Source: Longimicrobium sp.
Lineage (GTDB): Bacteria; Gemmatimonadota; Gemmatimonadetes; Longimicrobiales; Longimicrobiaceae
Direction: 5' to 3'
Assembly (NCBI RefSeq): GCF_035474595.1
Contig: NZ_DATIND010000149.1
Span: 1-64,000, forward strand
Length of the DNA stretch: 64,000 bases
Shown: piece by piece, positions 30,421 to 35,782 of the stretch
Layout: each line of letters opens with the position of its first letter
How positions within the stretch are numbered: the stretch's first letter is position 1
Notes under the pieces: model-generated
Seen by the model: the letters and a program-made list of their open reading frames with translations, nothing else
What the model was told of the DNA's origin: nothing
Databases searched by the model: none
Translations under genes and position numbers: made by a program

Positions 30421-30456
30421 GCCGCACCCGCGCCAGCATCTCCCGAAGCACGAAGC

Positions 30457-30491
30457 CCCTCGCCCGCATCTTCGCGGGCGAGGGGTTTTTT
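30457..30491 (+). terminator. Rho-independent terminator of pspA
   Basis: CCCCTCGCCCGC pairs perfectly with GCGGGCGAGGGG around ATCTTC-type loop bases and is followed by six T residues. Confidence 0.93.
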
Positions 30492-30511
30492 CGTCGGCGG
30501 GCGAGGTCACC

Positions 30512-30716: not shown

Positions 30717-31028
30717 TCACTCGTAGTGGAATCGGGCGGAGATGAACTCGACCGCCTCGTCGTCGACCCGGTACAGCAGCCGATGTGTCTTGTCGATGCG
30801 TCGCGACCGGTTGCCCGATCGGTCGTGCTTCAGCAGTTCCGGCTTTCCGATCCCTTCCCGCGGATTCCGCGCGATGTCGAGGATGATCCGCAGTATGCGC
30901 AGCGCCGTCCTCGGATCGACTGCCACCCAGTGCTGGAGGTCGTGCAGAAATCGTATTGCCACGACCAGCGTGTGAGGCCTGCGGGCGGAACCGCGTTCTT
31001 TCGCGTCAGCGCGCCTCTTCATGGCCAT
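30717..31028 (-). CDS. Txe/YoeB family toxin
   Basis: YoeB-type toxins are ribosome-dependent mRNA interferases. The 103-residue protein shows the family core: FLHDLQHWVAVDPRTALRIL, ARNPREGIGKPELLKHD, SRRIDKTHRLLYRVDD and the terminal SARFHY with the catalytic-type His-Tyr. An N-terminal basic extension of about 20 residues precedes the core; an ATG two codons in is an alternative start. The gene overlaps the upstream antitoxin gene by 23 bp, the common order antitoxin then toxin. A decayed paralogue lies split at 31544-31648 and 35206-35415. Confidence 0.9.
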   Translation of the reverse strand: MAMKRRADAKERGSARRPHTLVVAIRFLHDLQHWVAVDPRTALRILRIILDIARNPREGIGKPELLKHDRSGNRSRRIDKTHRLLYRVDDEAVEFISARFHYE

Positions 31029-31257
31029 CGCGCGCAGGGAACGGCCGGGCGCCGCGCGCTTCCCTCCAGCGGTCGAGCTCCGCGATTGATTCCTCGATCC
31101 AGGCCCGGTTCGCGGGTGAGCTCATCAGATATTCCCAGTCGCTCCGCCAGCGCTTTCGCAGGCGCGGGCGCCGCAGGCCGAGGTCGTGCCCGCCCGGGGG
31201 CGTTCTCCGGCACCCCGGTTGAATCGTTCCCGTCCGCATCCGCTTCCTCCTCGCCAT
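31006..31257 (-). CDS. Antitoxin-like protein paired with YoeB
   Basis: The 83-residue product begins MARRKRMRTG, a basic segment, and continues GLRRPRLRKRWRSDWEYLMSS and ANRAWIEESIAELDRWREARG. The C-terminal part resembles the toxin-wrapping tail of YefM/Phd antitoxins. The N-terminal Phd DNA-binding domain is replaced by a short Arg-rich sequence, so repression of the operon by the usual fold is doubtful. It lies directly upstream of the toxin and overlaps it. A homologous remnant exists at 35416-35644. Confidence 0.65.
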   Translation of the reverse strand: MARRKRMRTGTIQPGCRRTPPGGHDLGLRRPRLRKRWRSDWEYLMSSPANRAWIEESIAELDRWREARGARPFPARDGHEEAR

Positions 31258-31394
31258 GGTCGATTCGCTTGCCGGAAGTGGACGGTAAGGCTGTGGTTCG
31301 CTGGCGTCAAGTACTAATCTGATCGATAGATAAAGCGGTTCCACCGGTGGCGCAATGGGGATTCCGGACGGGTGGAATGCGCCAGCGGGGGGAC
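31255..31394 (-). repeat. 140-bp direct repeat, left copy (toxin-antitoxin promoter region)
   Basis: Nearly identical to 35641-35782 in the same orientation, with only a few mismatches. Starting at the antitoxin start codon, it covers the upstream, presumably promoter, sequence, including TACTAATCTGATCGATAGAT. Confidence 0.93.
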
Positions 31395-31421
31395 GCCTGA
31401 TCACCAGGGTCGTGCGGTCCT

Positions 31422-31526
31422 GCGCTGGAAGAGGAGGAGCGCGGCCGCGCCTGATCCGGCGCCGGCCCGATCGGCATCTCCCCACGCAGGAAGCCCCTCG
31501 CCCGCATCTTCGCGGTCGAGGGGCTT
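31422..31526 (+). repeat. Duplicated pspA 3' end and terminator
   Basis: The stretch GAGGAGCGCGGCCGCGCCTGA, which encodes the last codons and stop of pspA, recurs here. It is followed by the same hairpin (CCCCTCGCCCGC ... GAGGGG) with one stem mismatch. The source is 30388-30491. This marks the boundary of a tandem duplication. Confidence 0.88.
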
Positions 31527-31543
31527 CTTCTCGTTCCATCATC

Positions 31544-31648
31544 TCACGTGTACTGATCGCGCGCCCGGGCGAACTCGATCCGGTGGTTGCGCATCCGGTA
31601 GACGAGCCGGTGCTCGTCCGTGATGCGCCGCGACCATTAGCCGCCCAA
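31544..31648 (-). pseudogene. C-terminal half of a YoeB toxin gene, separated by the cassette
   Basis: The minus strand reads WSRRITDEHRLVYRMRNHRI followed by EFARARDQYT and a stop. This is the C-terminal third of a YoeB toxin, preceded by L-G-G-stop codons that join the cassette boundary at 31648/31649. Its N-terminal half is at 35218-35415. Joining the halves restores frame except for one TAA where family members have Tyr (GYWSRR). Confidence 0.85.
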
Positions 31649-31741
31649 CGCCCCAAGGGTCAGGGGTGCGGGGCGGGCGCGAAAACCTGTCGTCAGCGAA
31701 ATCATAGATGGCCCCGCATCCCCTGCAGCCGATTGTTAGGC
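31643..31741 (-). repeat. attC-like recombination site at the 3' end of the cassette
   Basis: On the minus strand it runs from GCCTAAC (R'' box, RYYYAAC) to GTTGGGC (GTTRRRY), 99 bp. Internally GCAGGGGATGCGGGGC pairs with GCCCCGCACCCCTG, with one extrahelical base, as in attC hairpins. The recombination point would be G|TT at 31649/31648. The cassette's first bases (TTAGGC at 35217-35212) complete a GTTAGGC box exactly complementary to GCCTAAC. Confidence 0.85.
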
Positions 31742-31890
31742 CGTGTTCGGCGAAGCTAAGGCACTATACGCCCAGCGAACCGCCGCGAGCCTCGCGAAAG
31801 TGCTTGCCATTTTCCGAAACTACAGAAACTACGCACACACACATCCTGCCTTTAGGTCAACAAATCCTCTGCGCGAAGACCTGATGATTG

Positions 31891-33429
31891 TCAAGACCCT
31901 GAACGTCGAGTGTATTCGGCAACTTTCCTTCGTAACGTAAACAAATGCGCACCGATTACACTGCTTGGAACGCCAGATTTCGTAACCAGAGTATCACGAA
32001 GACTTTCGCGCGATCCAATATTCGTAGCATCTAACGCCGACGCGGTACGAGAGTTCACCGCTCGAGAATGCCAGAGTGCGAAATCCAACAGGTGTAGCTC
32101 TAGGGTGGTTAAACGAGCACCATGGGCGAAACGCTGTAGCCGTTCCGCAGATTCCCCTCGCCCGACTGTCCCACCAACAGCGTCAATCCGAAACTCACCC
32201 GGGAGAGATCGGATTAGCTTTCGAAAATAGAGTTCGATATCCAAATGTGTTATATCAAGCACGCTGCGAATGTGGTGCTTGCGTCGTGAGGTTGATGGAA
32301 GCCACTGCAGCCATGGTCCACCACCCCAGATAGTTTCTGCAGCGACGGCTGATGGAGATCCAAGCGGTACCAAGGAAATATCTGTGCACGACTGATTCAC
32401 AACGGCGTCCCAACTTGATCGCAGCATGGGTGGAAGGGAAAAGCGCAAGAACGGAGTATCCGTAGCAAGAAGTTGTAAAGCACGCACGTCAGGATGATCG
32501 TGAAATTGAGAGATTGTAGCGTTGTTCACTAACGCGTACTGATGATCTGATAGGGCGTGGAGGAATAGGGCGAGCATCGGTGAACGACGAGCGGTATCGT
32601 CGAGTTCTCCGATCCTATCAATGGCTGGAAGCTTCTCCCCGTTTAGCAACCGTTGGCGTGCGACTTCTGTCCACCGGACTTCTCGCGACTCCAAGGAAAC
32701 GCGTGCTCCCAGCTCGACATACGAAATAGCGACGTTCTCCGGAATCGCCCCGACCATTTGGGCTCCCACCGAACTCATTAGGTATGTAACCGAGGATTGC
32801 CATCCATTCTGGATAAATAGAGGTTGGTCCACTTGGTGACCATTCTGCTGCGTCCAACGTAGGAAATAATATCCCGGATTAAGGCTGGTGGAAGCGCCGC
32901 TCCAGCCCTCCGTTCCCCAACGCGTACCGGCTCCATCTAGCAGAAGGTGATCGACGAGGGAGCCATCTGGTCTCAATAGGCTCGCGTTCGGTGGGGAAAG
33001 AGTAGGATTGACTTCTCCCTGCTGTCTGATGAATATTACCAATTCGCCACCATGGCCCAGAGACTTTCCTGGAACTCTGGCGAGATCCGTCAGCCGCTGT
33101 GCTTGTTGCGCGCTCATCGAGTGGCGGTCCAGCGGAAAAGGCGAGAATATCTCCATATATGGCCCCGAAACGGGATAGGAATCCATTTCAGGCGAAAGGT
33201 ACACAAGTTCATCTTGTACTGATGAGCCGATTCGAAATCGTAACTTGTATGGGCCTGGGTTGAGTCCGATCGCGATTTTGCCAATGGCACGTGACAAGAG
33301 CGTGAAGCTCCCATCAAACACCGAAATCTCTGTCAGAGGTGTATCCGCCGTAACCGTAAGCTGGACCTGATTATCGGCTGGCGCCCCCCGAATTGTGGGC
33401 GTGTAAGGAGGCGGTTCAGAAATCGACAT
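31891..33429 (-). CDS. Caspase-partner protein of unknown family with beta-domain repeats
   Basis: I do not recognise this 512-residue protein. Residues 20-80 and 125-218 each look like beta-sandwich modules and contain LNPGPYKLR (56-64) and LNPGYYFLR (183-191). The same LxPGxYxLR pattern occurs at the C-terminus of the caspase encoded upstream (LTPGLYVLR, 317-325). The rest (about 250-505) is probably mostly helical, with no membrane segment or signal peptide. A GGAGGAG ribosome binding site precedes the ATG, and the gene overlaps the caspase by 14 bp. It could be caspase substrate, effector or sensor. Confidence 0.88.
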   Translation of the reverse strand: MSISEPPPYTPTIRGAPADNQVQLTVTADTPLTEISVFDGSFTLLSRAIGKIAIGLNPGPYKLRFRIGSSVQDELVYLSPEMDSYPVSGPYMEIFSPFPLDRHSMSAQQAQRLTDLARVPGKSLGHGGELVIFIRQQGEVNPTLSPPNASLLRPDGSLVDHLLLDGAGTRWGTEGWSGASTSLNPGYYFLRWTQQNGHQVDQPLFIQNGWQSSVTYLMSSVGAQMVGAIPENVAISYVELGARVSLESREVRWTEVARQRLLNGEKLPAIDRIGELDDTARRSPMLALFLHALSDHQYALVNNATISQFHDHPDVRALQLLATDTPFLRFSLPPMLRSSWDAVVNQSCTDISLVPLGSPSAVAAETIWGGGPWLQWLPSTSRRKHHIRSVLDITHLDIELYFRKLIRSLPGEFRIDAVGGTVGRGESAERLQRFAHGARLTTLELHLLDFALWHSRAVNSRTASALDATNIGSRESLRDTLVTKSGVPSSVIGAHLFTLRRKVAEYTRRSGS

Positions 33430-34456
33430 TTTGCTCCTCCGTTCCCGTCACTTGAATGACCTTATCTGGTTTCCGATCGCATCGAAGGACGTACAATCCT
33501 GGCGTAAGCTCCTGTTCCCACACATTCGCTTCTGTCCTAGATGGATAAAGATCAATCAACATATTCCGATGGTCGTATAACTCAATAGCCCAACAATCGG
33601 TGTGAACCCGTGTTAACGACCGGGGGGTCTCAGATTCGACCAAGATGATATCATTCCGACGGTCGTATTCAAACCTCGGTTCGATATACTCAGAAGGTGC
33701 GCAAAGCTCCGGCATGTACTGATGCACAAACGTGTCCAGCCGCTCTGTCGTGATAGAACTCGACGTTGTTGCTGCAGCTCCACTGAGGCCTTCCAAAAGC
33801 GCAACCGTGAAAATGCCGCGGATCTCACTGAACCGGGCGATAAACTTCTCTCGGCTTTCCATGGACCACCGCGTCGCGAATGCAAAAGCATACCTAACCG
33901 AGGTTCCACGTCTATCTACCTTAGGTTCCCAAGGAACCGGGCGGGCCGGTGCAGTGATATAAGATTCCCGGCAGCAATCCATAATGAGAACAATCTCTTG
34001 AAAATAGCCCGACGCACGAAACCAATTAGCGTAATCGCGCGCTGGGATGTGAAATCCGGTGCTACGAGGCCGCGCTTCTGCGGTAAGAAGCGATGCATCT
34101 TCATATGTCCTTGCGAAGCCGTGGCCCGCGAAGAACATGTAAAGTCGACGACCCCCAAAACCCAATTCCTCAGATCGCTCGATGATATTATCAAAAACCA
34201 TGTCGATTTCTGAAACCATCGGCCGAGCATCCTGAGGCTTGAGTGGTTGAGGAAATTGTGAAGATAGAATCATCTTCACGTTCTCGGCAGGAACGCGAGC
34301 GCTCTGGCGAATCCAATTCTCGAATGCTCGGGCGTCATTTTCAGCCCCCTGTAGATCCCGGAGGCCGGGGTACCTATTGATCCCTACGATTACAGCATGA
34401 TCATCCCAGTTCATTTGAGTTCTCTGGAGAACATGGTTCGTGCCGACAACACCCAC
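33416..34456 (-). CDS. Caspase family (C14) cysteine protease
   Basis: The N-terminal 240 residues are a caspase p20-like domain: HAVIVGINRYPGLRDLQGAENDA-type first strand, catalytic H112 in MFFAGHGF, and catalytic C162 in VLIMDCCRES. Bacterial caspases usually act in conflict or cell-suicide systems. A C-terminal beta domain (about 285-340) carries the LTPGLYVLR motif shared with the downstream protein. The GTG start overlaps the stop of the upstream gene (TAGTG); an in-frame ATG at 34414, giving 332 residues, is an alternative. Codon usage is AT-richer than the surrounding genes. Confidence 0.93.
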   Translation of the reverse strand: MGVVGTNHVLQRTQMNWDDHAVIVGINRYPGLRDLQGAENDARAFENWIRQSARVPAENVKMILSSQFPQPLKPQDARPMVSEIDMVFDNIIERSEELGFGGRRLYMFFAGHGFARTYEDASLLTAEARPRSTGFHIPARDYANWFRASGYFQEIVLIMDCCRESYITAPARPVPWEPKVDRRGTSVRYAFAFATRWSMESREKFIARFSEIRGIFTVALLEGLSGAAATTSSSITTERLDTFVHQYMPELCAPSEYIEPRFEYDRRNDIILVESETPRSLTRVHTDCWAIELYDHRNMLIDLYPSRTEANVWEQELTPGLYVLRCDRKPDKVIQVTGTEEQNVDF

Positions 34457-34791
34457 TATTTTCTCTCGTTCCGCCGAAACAACAGCTTGACACCACCTGC
34501 AAGTTCTGTCGATGCAGATCCAATCAACCTGATCTCACCTTTGGCAGTCACTTCGATTTGTAGTTCAACTTGGTCTAGAATGAAGTTGGACCCGAAATCT
34601 TCGATCCTCGTTAATACTGCTCCAATACTGCCGCAGAACGCAACAAGATTCTGTGCGAGAACGTCAGGAGACGCTATCCCGATCGTAGTCGCCAGCCGCT
34701 GCGCTTGAGAGAGTACACCACGCGTGTCGGAGCCCGTATGTAGCTCCTGTGCAGACGTGATGATCATGATCCGGGCAAGTTCGTTGCTCAT
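34456..34791 (-). CDS. Pepco/Trypco-like small protein of conflict systems
   Basis: The 111-residue protein has a helical N-terminal half, then VLAQNLVAFCGSIGAVLTRI, a strand pair LDQVELQIEVTAKGEIRLIG and a small-residue run ending GGVKLLFRR. This helix, strand EVTAKGE-x-LIG, and terminal FxLxRR-type strand resemble the peptidase-co-occurring (Pepco) domains that accompany caspases and trypsins in predicted bacterial conflict systems. It is the first gene of the operon, behind a good promoter, and overlaps the caspase start by one base. Family membership is by eye. Confidence 0.72.
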   Translation of the reverse strand: MSNELARIMIITSAQELHTGSDTRGVLSQAQRLATTIGIASPDVLAQNLVAFCGSIGAVLTRIEDFGSNFILDQVELQIEVTAKGEIRLIGSASTELAGGVKLLFRRNERK

Positions 34792-34820
34792 GGCGATCTC
34801 ACTGGAAGTAACCCAATTCG

Positions 34821-34849
34821 ATTGTAGTCGCGGATTGCTTTACAGGCAA
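34821..34849 (-). promoter_or_regulatory. Promoter of the caspase operon
   Basis: On the minus strand TTGCCT (34849-34844) and TACAAT (34826-34821) are spaced by exactly 17 bp, about 30 bp before the first start codon. Confidence 0.68.
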
Positions 34850-34871
34850 TCTTTGCGATTCTCCAAGCTAT

Positions 34872-35084
34872 CTACGAGCCTTCAAGTTCCATCGCAAGTG
34901 CCTCGGCAGCATCCGCCCGCTCGCGGCTTGCTTTCGCCCCAGCACGCGCCATCTCTGCCAGCGTCTGCTCCCAGCCAGGGCGCGGCCGATGACGGCCGCC
35001 TTCCGCCCGCCACCGTCGGGCGAGGTTGAGGCTCACTCCAAATGCGGCCGCAACGTCGTCCATGGAGTATCCCGTCAGCGGCAA
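34872..35084 (-). CDS. Small helix-turn-helix protein in the cassette
   Basis: The 70-residue product begins MPLTGYSMDDVAAAFGVSLN followed by LARRWRAEG, a compact helix-turn-helix, then an Ala/Glu-rich helix. It is encoded upstream of the caspase operon promoter, same strand. It could regulate the operon. Its GC content is nearer to the host than to the caspase genes, and no ribosome binding site stands out, so expression is uncertain. Confidence 0.5.
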   Translation of the reverse strand: MPLTGYSMDDVAAAFGVSLNLARRWRAEGGRHRPRPGWEQTLAEMARAGAKASRERADAAEALAMELEGS

Positions 35085-35162
35085 TTCTTGGAGCGGGCTG
35101 CGGAAACTCGCCCCTGAAAGTCGACAAGACTTTTGCGCACCTACCTATTAGGATAGAACACA

Positions 35163-35196
35163 CGGCAGCCGCGGGACGCGCTCCCTGCGGCTGCCG
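35163..35196. terminator. Hairpin at the 5' end of the cassette
   Basis: CGGCAGCCGCGGGA pairs with TCCCTGCGGCTGCCG with one bulge, 20 bp inside the cassette. It could stop transcription entering from the interrupted toxin operon. Confidence 0.55.
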
Positions 35197-35205
35197 CGAT
35201 GTTTG

Positions 35206-35415
35206 TCAGCGGCCTAACGAGTGCTTCAGCGGCTTCGGCTTTCCGATCCCCTCCCGCGGATCGCGCGCGATCTCGAGCATGAGGTGGAGCACCTTCGCCG
35301 CGGTCCGCGGAGCCTCGGCGACCCACTTCGCCAGGTCCAGCAGGAACTGAGTAGATACGACCAGCGGCGTTTCCTCTTCCGGACCGTCGGTGCGCGGCCG
35401 GCCAGGCGGCGTCAT
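35206..35415 (-). pseudogene. N-terminal part of a YoeB toxin gene, cut by the cassette
   Basis: The minus strand encodes VVSTQFLLDLAKWVAEAPRT, then KVLHLMLEIARDPREGIGKP and KPLKHS, homologous to the intact toxin at 30717-31028. Sequence identity to a toxin stops at codon TCG (35218-35220). The last codons L-G-R-stop come from the cassette. The rest of the gene is at 31544-31648. Confidence 0.87.
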
Positions 35416-35644
35416 CGTGGCGATGCGCGGGAGGTGCATCGAGGATCGCCGCCCAGCGGTCCAGCTCCGCGATGGAATCCAGCAGCAGCTTCGCGCTCGC
35501 GGGATTCCGCAGCAGGTGGGCCGTCTCGTCCCGCCAGCGCCCGCGCAGGCGCGGCCTTCGCAGGCCAAGATCGCGCGTGCCCGGCGTGGATCCCCTCCAC
35601 CTCGATCGAACGGTTCCTATCCGCATCCGCTTCCTCCTCGCCAT
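35416..35644 (-). pseudogene. Antitoxin remnant of the second toxin-antitoxin unit
   Basis: It begins MARRKRMRIG and contains DLGLRRPRLRGRWRDETAHL and SIAELDRW, parallel to the antitoxin at 31006-31257. The reading frame has lost its stop and runs on into out-of-frame toxin sequence. Either a frameshift has broken it or the end has diverged. Confidence 0.65.
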
Positions 35645-35782
35645 GGTCGATTCGCTTGCCGGAAGTGGACGGTAAGGCTGTGGTTCGCTCGCGTCAAGTA
35701 CTAATCTGATCGATAGATAAAGCTGTTCCACCGGTGGCGCAATGGGGATTCCGGACGGGTGGAATGCGCCAGCGGGGGAACG
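35641..35782 (-). repeat. 140-bp direct repeat, right copy
   Basis: The partner of 31255-31394. It is the 5' region of the second toxin-antitoxin unit and borders the AI-2E transporter gene. Confidence 0.93.

What the first reader, a model, noticed from the sequence alone, without database searches (positions are those of the whole stretch)
31643..31741. attC-like site with matching boxes and an extrahelical base
On the minus strand GCCTAAC opens the site, and the cassette's leading TTAGGC with a preceding G would give GTTAGGC, its perfect complement. Internal arms GCAGGGGATGCGGGGC and GCCCCGCACCCCTG pair with one unpaired base. Those are defining features of attC hairpins, found here outside any array.
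Basis: partly seen in the sequence, partly recalled or inferred. Interest (0 to 1): 0.8.

Follow-up and report, generated by a model that had tools for sequence, protein, structure and literature searches.

The report
Stray integron cassette splitting toxin gene
The site is a real attC recombination site ending a 3.6-kb integron gene cassette that carries a caspase-type (probably immune) operon and was pasted, outside any cassette array, into the middle of a toxin-antitoxin gene of a Gemmatimonadetes bacterium whose own integron integrase has since decayed.

Summary
The 99-bp site (31643-31741, minus) belongs to a family of about 100-bp sites: 17-18 confident matches in this genome, and matches in 16 of 21 genomes of its family but in none of 40 other genomes of the order. 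They form short arrays, one of them beside a decayed intI. One lone family site sits next to a canonical 59-bp class-1-type attC. The site ends a 3,569-bp cassette (31649-35217, 54% GC against 70% around it). The cassette starts TTAGGC plus a hairpin that, in every other held copy of its 14-nt motif, follows an attC or attC-like end. The cassette splits a yoeB gene: Pfam positions 4-48 lie on one side and 52-80 on the other. The target is G^TTGGGC, so the R' box in place is part target; the cassette's own TTAGGC restores the perfect R box in the excised circle. Cargo: a Pepco gene, a caspase and a 512-aa partner; the last two form a pair also found on rhizobial plasmids. Best explanation: off-target (attG-type) cassette insertion by an integron integrase, now frozen. 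The mechanism is known; the attC class, cargo and clean insertion are new instances. Folding energy alone would not have shown this.

The parts
31643..31741 (-). attC site, 99 bp; R'' GCCTAAC 31735-31741, R' GTTGGGC 31643-31649, L/stem arms 31661-31674 and 31711-31725, extrahelical T (plus strand) at 31719
   Evidence: sequence; family model R1 113.4 bits on the bottom strand against 19.8 on the top strand; family members
31649..35217 (-). complete gene cassette, 3,569 bp, from TTAGGC (35217) to the G of the R' box (31649); cuts fall between 31648/31649 and 35217/35218
   Evidence: GC 53.7% against 70% in flanks; similarity to other cassettes at both ends
35160..35202 (-). cassette-start hairpin (13-bp stem), shared with other cassettes of the family
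   Evidence: in every other held locus the 14-nt motif follows an attC or attC-like R' end
34872..35084 (-). possible small HTH protein (70 aa), weak
   Evidence: best Pfam match HTH_23 E 0.0015, below cut-off
34456..34791 (-). Pepco-domain protein, 111 aa
   Evidence: PF24393 E 4e-17
33416..34456 (-). caspase-like peptidase, 346 aa, with AGHG and DCC motifs
   Evidence: PF00656 E 2.6e-7; PADLOC 'caspase' E 4.7e-18; NF047832 42 bits, below its cut-off of 140
31891..33429 (-). 512-aa partner of the caspase, 14-nt gene overlap; no named family
   Evidence: no family hits; 23% identity to the gene directly after a caspase on a Mesorhizobium plasmid, with the same 14-nt overlap
35215..35349 (-). 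N-terminal part of the split yoeB gene (upstream flank of the insertion)
   Evidence: PF06769 positions 4-48 of 80
31550..31636 (-). C-terminal part of the split yoeB gene (downstream flank)
   Evidence: PF06769 positions 52-80 of 80; an in-frame stop lies just before it
30717..31028 (-). intact tandem paralogue of the split yoeB gene
   Evidence: PF06769 E 4e-26; 286-nt upstream repeat 31110-31395 / 35497-35782, 85%

Best explanation
A single integron gene cassette was inserted by an integron integrase (IntI) at a non-attI genomic target (an attG-type or 'secondary' site), the core G^TTGGGC inside a yoeB toxin gene. The bottom strand of the excised cassette's attC (plus strand here) folds into a hairpin with an extrahelical T on its R''-L'' arm. 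IntI joins it to the double-stranded target at G^TT, which leaves TTAGGC... at the cassette start and G+TTGGGC at its end. The insertion sits in sense orientation behind the antitoxin-yoeB promoter region. The cassette carries a Pepco-caspase-partner operon, most likely an immune or cell-suicide module. The lineage's integrase has since decayed, so the event is frozen unless IntI is supplied from outside. Shown: attC anatomy, both junctions, split gene, cassette family, intI remnant. Inferred: catalysis by IntI, strand choice, expression from the TA promoter, immune function of the cargo.
For: (1) R/L/extrahelical-T anatomy on the expected arm, 3' of genes on the same strand, matching the published definition (PMC2727003). 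(2) 17-18 confident homologous sites in this genome, in short arrays on contigs C46, C119 and C146 and as singletons, the C46 array divergent from an intI remnant. (3) Present in 16 of 21 genomes of its family, 0 of 40 others of the order; an exact 21-nt arm occurs in GTDB contigs only in two Gemmatimonadetes MAGs. (4) Cassette start: in every other held locus the 14-nt motif ATCGCGGCAGCCGC directly follows an attC or attC-like R' end; here yoeB coding sequence precedes it. (5) yoeB split at Pfam 48/52. (6) GC 54% against 70%. (7) The lone family attC on C83 is followed by a cassette ending in a canonical 59-bp class-1-type attC, 58.9 bits. (8) Orthologous PspA-transporter intervals in five relatives whose interval was read lack the cassette.
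Against: No intact IntI in this assembly (97% complete). No relative carries this exact yoeB copy without the cassette, so the empty site is inferred from the two halves. A 13-member class-1-type attC model does not score the site. Folding energy is not significant by itself. The cassette is large and multi-gene for an integron. The genome is a draft, so misassembly cannot be wholly excluded, though both junctions falling on att cores makes it unlikely.
Confidence: 0.93

Rival explanations
1. The locus is the remnant of a former larger array: several cassettes were once here and all but one were lost, rather than one cassette inserted alone.
For: The genome holds arrays of 4-6 such sites elsewhere, and CALINs are known to shrink (PMC12444791).
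Against: The start junction abuts yoeB directly and the end junction continues the same gene, and the R' box carries target bases (TTGGGC). A shrunken array would leave the same footprint only if every loss was precise excision.
Confidence: 0.05
2. A chance palindrome or the repeat of another element (IS end, REP/BIME-like, terminator) that imitates attC.
For: Folding energy is not better than shuffles.
Against: Homologous sites separate different cassettes in arrays, lie beside intI remnants in several genomes, and end at a cassette start with conserved TTAGGC; a canonical 59-bp attC shares an array with one of them.
Confidence: 0.02

Closest known systems
Integron cassette insertion at attG / secondary sites (Loot et al. 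2024 Nat Microbiol 9:228, as cited in PMC12901181 and PMC12444791; off-target activity in PMC10127599)
   Same: attC joined to a non-attI genomic site with a GTT core; lone cassette outside any array
   Different: Natural, old event in a Gemmatimonadetes lineage with a dead integrase; target is a TA toxin gene; the primary paper is not held here and was not read
CALIN elements and integrons with decayed intI (Xanthomonas, PMC12444791; PMC8618304)
   Same: Homogeneous clade-specific attC sites, short arrays without intact intI, repeated loss of intI in a genus
   Different: Other phylum; dispersed short arrays and singletons; only a deleted intI remnant in this genome
Defence genes carried by integron cassettes (Xanthomonas survey, PMC12444791)
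   Same: Immune-type cargo in a cassette
   Different: Cargo here is a Pepco-caspase-partner operon of 3.6 kb, not one of the systems listed there
EACC1-caspase and related caspase conflict systems (PMC7159879)
   Same: Caspase peptidase in a small operon with a variable partner
   Different: 5' gene is Pepco, not EACC1; the caspase scores 42 bits against a cut-off of 140 for the EACC1-associated model

Membership tests
integron attC site | R''/R' boxes RYYYAAC ... GTTRRRY that pair with each other | tested here: met
   GCCTAAC / GTTGGGC, 7/7 with one G.T; perfect with the cassette's own TTAGGC
integron attC site | L stem with extrahelical bases on the R''-L'' arm, including a T | tested here: met
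   single T31719 after a 6-bp helix on the L'' side of the bottom strand, as in aadA1-type sites
integron attC site | conserved extrahelical G in L'', 6-8 nt from the T | tested here: inconclusive
   with the R boxes held paired, the fold leaves a C and a G unpaired on that arm, the G 8 nt from the T; not in the free fold
integron attC site | G directly after AAC of R' on the bottom strand | tested here: met
   GCCCAAC-G; in nearly all family members
integron attC site | scores with an attC covariance model | tested here: inconclusive
   own-family model 113 bits, but the window site is one of its 12 training sequences; a small class-1-type model misses it and finds nothing in 29 loci around integron integrases of the class and family
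integron attC site | recombined by IntI in vivo, bottom strand preferred | not testable with these tools
   needs a recombination assay
integron gene cassette | gene(s) followed by attC, start TTRRRY complementary to R'' | tested here: met
   31649-35217; start and end shared with cassettes in arrays
cassette inserted at a secondary (attG-type) site | junction at G^TT in non-integron DNA, interrupting the target | tested here: met
   yoeB split at Pfam positions 48/52, core G^TTGGGC
cassette inserted at a secondary (attG-type) site | uninterrupted site in a relative | tested here: inconclusive
   relatives lack the cassette at the syntenic place, but none keeps this yoeB copy; G119 has one YoeB-like module there
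functional sedentary chromosomal integron | intact intI in the genome | tested here: not met
   only a deleted remnant, about residues 31-68 and 287-313, at C46:142390-142585
EACC1-caspase conflict system | EACC1 domain gene next to a caspase of the EACC1-associated type | tested here: not met
   neighbour is Pepco; NF047832 at 42 bits against cut-off 140

The most novel reading that the evidence does not exclude
In this Gemmatimonadetes family the integron no longer works as a platform but as a disperser: cassettes with one clade-specific attC class, some with a shared start hairpin, have been seeded as singletons and mini-arrays at attG-type sites around the chromosome, including as sense insertions that put a caspase immune operon under a toxin-antitoxin promoter.
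Probability: 0.25. Interest if true: 0.65.

Novelty: new member of a known kind. Interest (0 to 1): 0.42.

Why it matters
Off-target cassette insertion is, to my knowledge, documented mainly in laboratory assays. This is a natural case with both junctions, the split target gene and a source family of cassettes in the same genome, so it can be tested directly. It also adds a clade-specific attC class that a class-1-type model misses (cassettes in this phylum may be under-counted), and a caspase operon as cassette cargo.

Tried and rejected
Folding energy as proof (not significant). Covariation in the family alignment (uninformative). Rfam (no hits). A class-1-type attC model from 13 plasmid-borne sites (misses the site and the phylum's integron loci), though it found a canonical 59-bp attC at C83:124075-124133. 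A strict R-box scan of the DNA upstream of intI in genomes of the class (few candidates). DNA search of the cassette in plasmids (none). Relatives of the 512-aa protein in 394 class genomes and in GTDB contigs (none). PDB sequence searches (none). AlphaFold of the 512-aa protein from one sequence (pLDDT 35, unusable). DNA match to the yoeB flank in G010 and G029 (none).

Full report
The site. Window 31643-31741, minus strand, reads GCCTAAC-AATCGGCTG-CAGGGGATGCGGGGC ... GCCCCGCACCCCTG-ACCCTTGGGGC-GTTGGGC. R'' and R' pair over seven bases with one G.T wobble. The inner helix is 14 bp with one extrahelical T on the R''-L'' arm of the bottom strand, after a 6-bp helix, the same topology as aadA1-type attC sites extracted here from plasmids. 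Published attC definitions put the extrahelical bases on that arm (PMC2727003). Energy alone proves nothing in this GC-rich sequence: z = -0.57 and -1.29, and R-box pairs of this kind arise 0.42 times per shuffled 64 kb, most of them folding as well.

A family of sites. The site has 78-89% identical full-length or near full-length copies in its own genome. A covariance model of 12 of them, the window site included, finds 17 sites at E below 1e-7 plus weaker ones: four on C46, six on C146, four or more on C119, and single ones on C83, C38 and C149, the window. Array members separate unrelated sequence. The model matches in 16 of 21 genomes of the same family and in none of 40 other genomes of the order. 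An exact 21-nt arm occurs among the GTDB contigs only in two Gemmatimonadetes MAGs, RYN_364 and 0707_bin15, which by contig coordinates correspond to G132 and G125. In the window the site scores 113.4 bits on the bottom strand and 19.8 on the top; the next best place scores 20.3.

Integron context. The C46 array lies beside, and divergent from, an intI remnant that keeps about residues 31-68 (63% identity to the intact IntI of G134) and 287-313 (81%), directly adjacent. Broken or partial intI also lies beside family sites in G125, G119, G124 and G132. Intact or near-intact IntI is found only in other genera of the family, G134, G127 and G128. On C83 the lone family attC is followed by a 193-aa gene and then a canonical 59-bp attC (GGCTAACAATTCTTCCAAGCC...GTTAGGC; 58.9 bits with a class-1-type model). 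So family sites act as cassette ends in arrays that also hold textbook attC sites.

The cassette. The other boundary is at 35217/35218, where the minus strand reads ...AAGCACTCG^TTAGGCCGCTGACAAACATCGCGGCAGCCGC... In every other held locus the 14-nt motif ATCGCGGCAGCCGC directly follows an attC or attC-like R' end; in the window, yoeB coding sequence precedes it. The cassette is therefore 31649-35217, 3,569 bp, 53.7% GC in a 70% GC neighbourhood. The R' box at the downstream end reads GTTGGGC where most family members read GTTAGGC, as expected if TTGGGC comes from the target.

The target. The upstream flank matches YoeB Pfam positions 4-48 and the downstream flank 52-80, so the insertion falls at about positions 49-51 of the profile. 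The halves were searched apart and not joined. An in-frame stop now lies in the downstream part. An intact paralogue lies at 30717-31028 in a tandem duplication. The interval between the PspA gene and the transporter gene is a variable slot in relatives: nearly empty in G131 and G132, another gene in G126, one YoeB-like module in G119, and no match to the cassette in any of the five whose interval was compared. The cassette reads in the same direction as yoeB, so the TA promoter could drive it (inference).

The cargo. Three overlapping or abutting genes: Pepco (PF24393, 4e-17), caspase (PF00656, 2.6e-7; AGHG and DCC motifs present), and a 512-aa protein without a named family. The caspase and the 512-aa protein have homologues in the same order, with the same 14-nt overlap, on a Mesorhizobium huakuii plasmid (30% over 267 aa and 23% over 396 aa). 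In M. onobrychidis the homologue is part of a larger phospholipase-D-like protein followed by a trypsin-like peptidase gene. By analogy with caspase conflict systems (PMC7159879) this is most likely an immune or suicide module; that is inference. It is not an EACC1 system. The 512-aa protein was not found in 394 genomes of the class other than its own.

Mechanism and novelty. The simplest account is cassette integration by an integron integrase at an attG-type site, a known reaction (Loot et al. 2024, cited in PMC12901181 and PMC12444791; the paper itself is not held here). CALINs formed by off-target insertion or by loss of intI are also known (PMC8618304), and genus-wide intI decay is known in Xanthomonas (PMC12444791). 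New here are the attC class, the cargo and a clean natural insertion into a toxin gene.

Noticed in passing
window 35160-35202; also L045, L049, L057, L060, L076, L099: A GC-rich hairpin directly after TTAGGC is shared by the starts of several otherwise different cassettes of the family (48-70 nt, up to 96% identity). It may be an attenuator or insulator between cassettes, or a mark of common descent of cassette starts.
   Followed up: partly
G000:C83:121883-124981 (L047): Another stray cassette locus lies between two near-identical methyltransferase genes, as the window cassette lies between tandem yoeB modules; one cassette there ends in a canonical 59-bp class-1-type attC.
   Followed up: partly
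window 30436-30496, 31474-31534, 31110-31395 / 35497-35782: Tandem duplication of the YoeB module with the upstream region of the transporter gene and a terminator-like repeat (GAAGCCCCTCGCCCGC...).
   Followed up: no
genomes G119, G124, G125, G132, G000: intI is broken in different ways in several members of the genus and family, while intact copies survive in other genera: repeated loss of the integrase with retention of attC sites.
   Followed up: partly
PspA-transporter interval, L156, L157, L160, L161, L162: A variable slot: TA module(s), a DUF559-like endonuclease gene, or almost nothing, depending on the species.
   Followed up: partly
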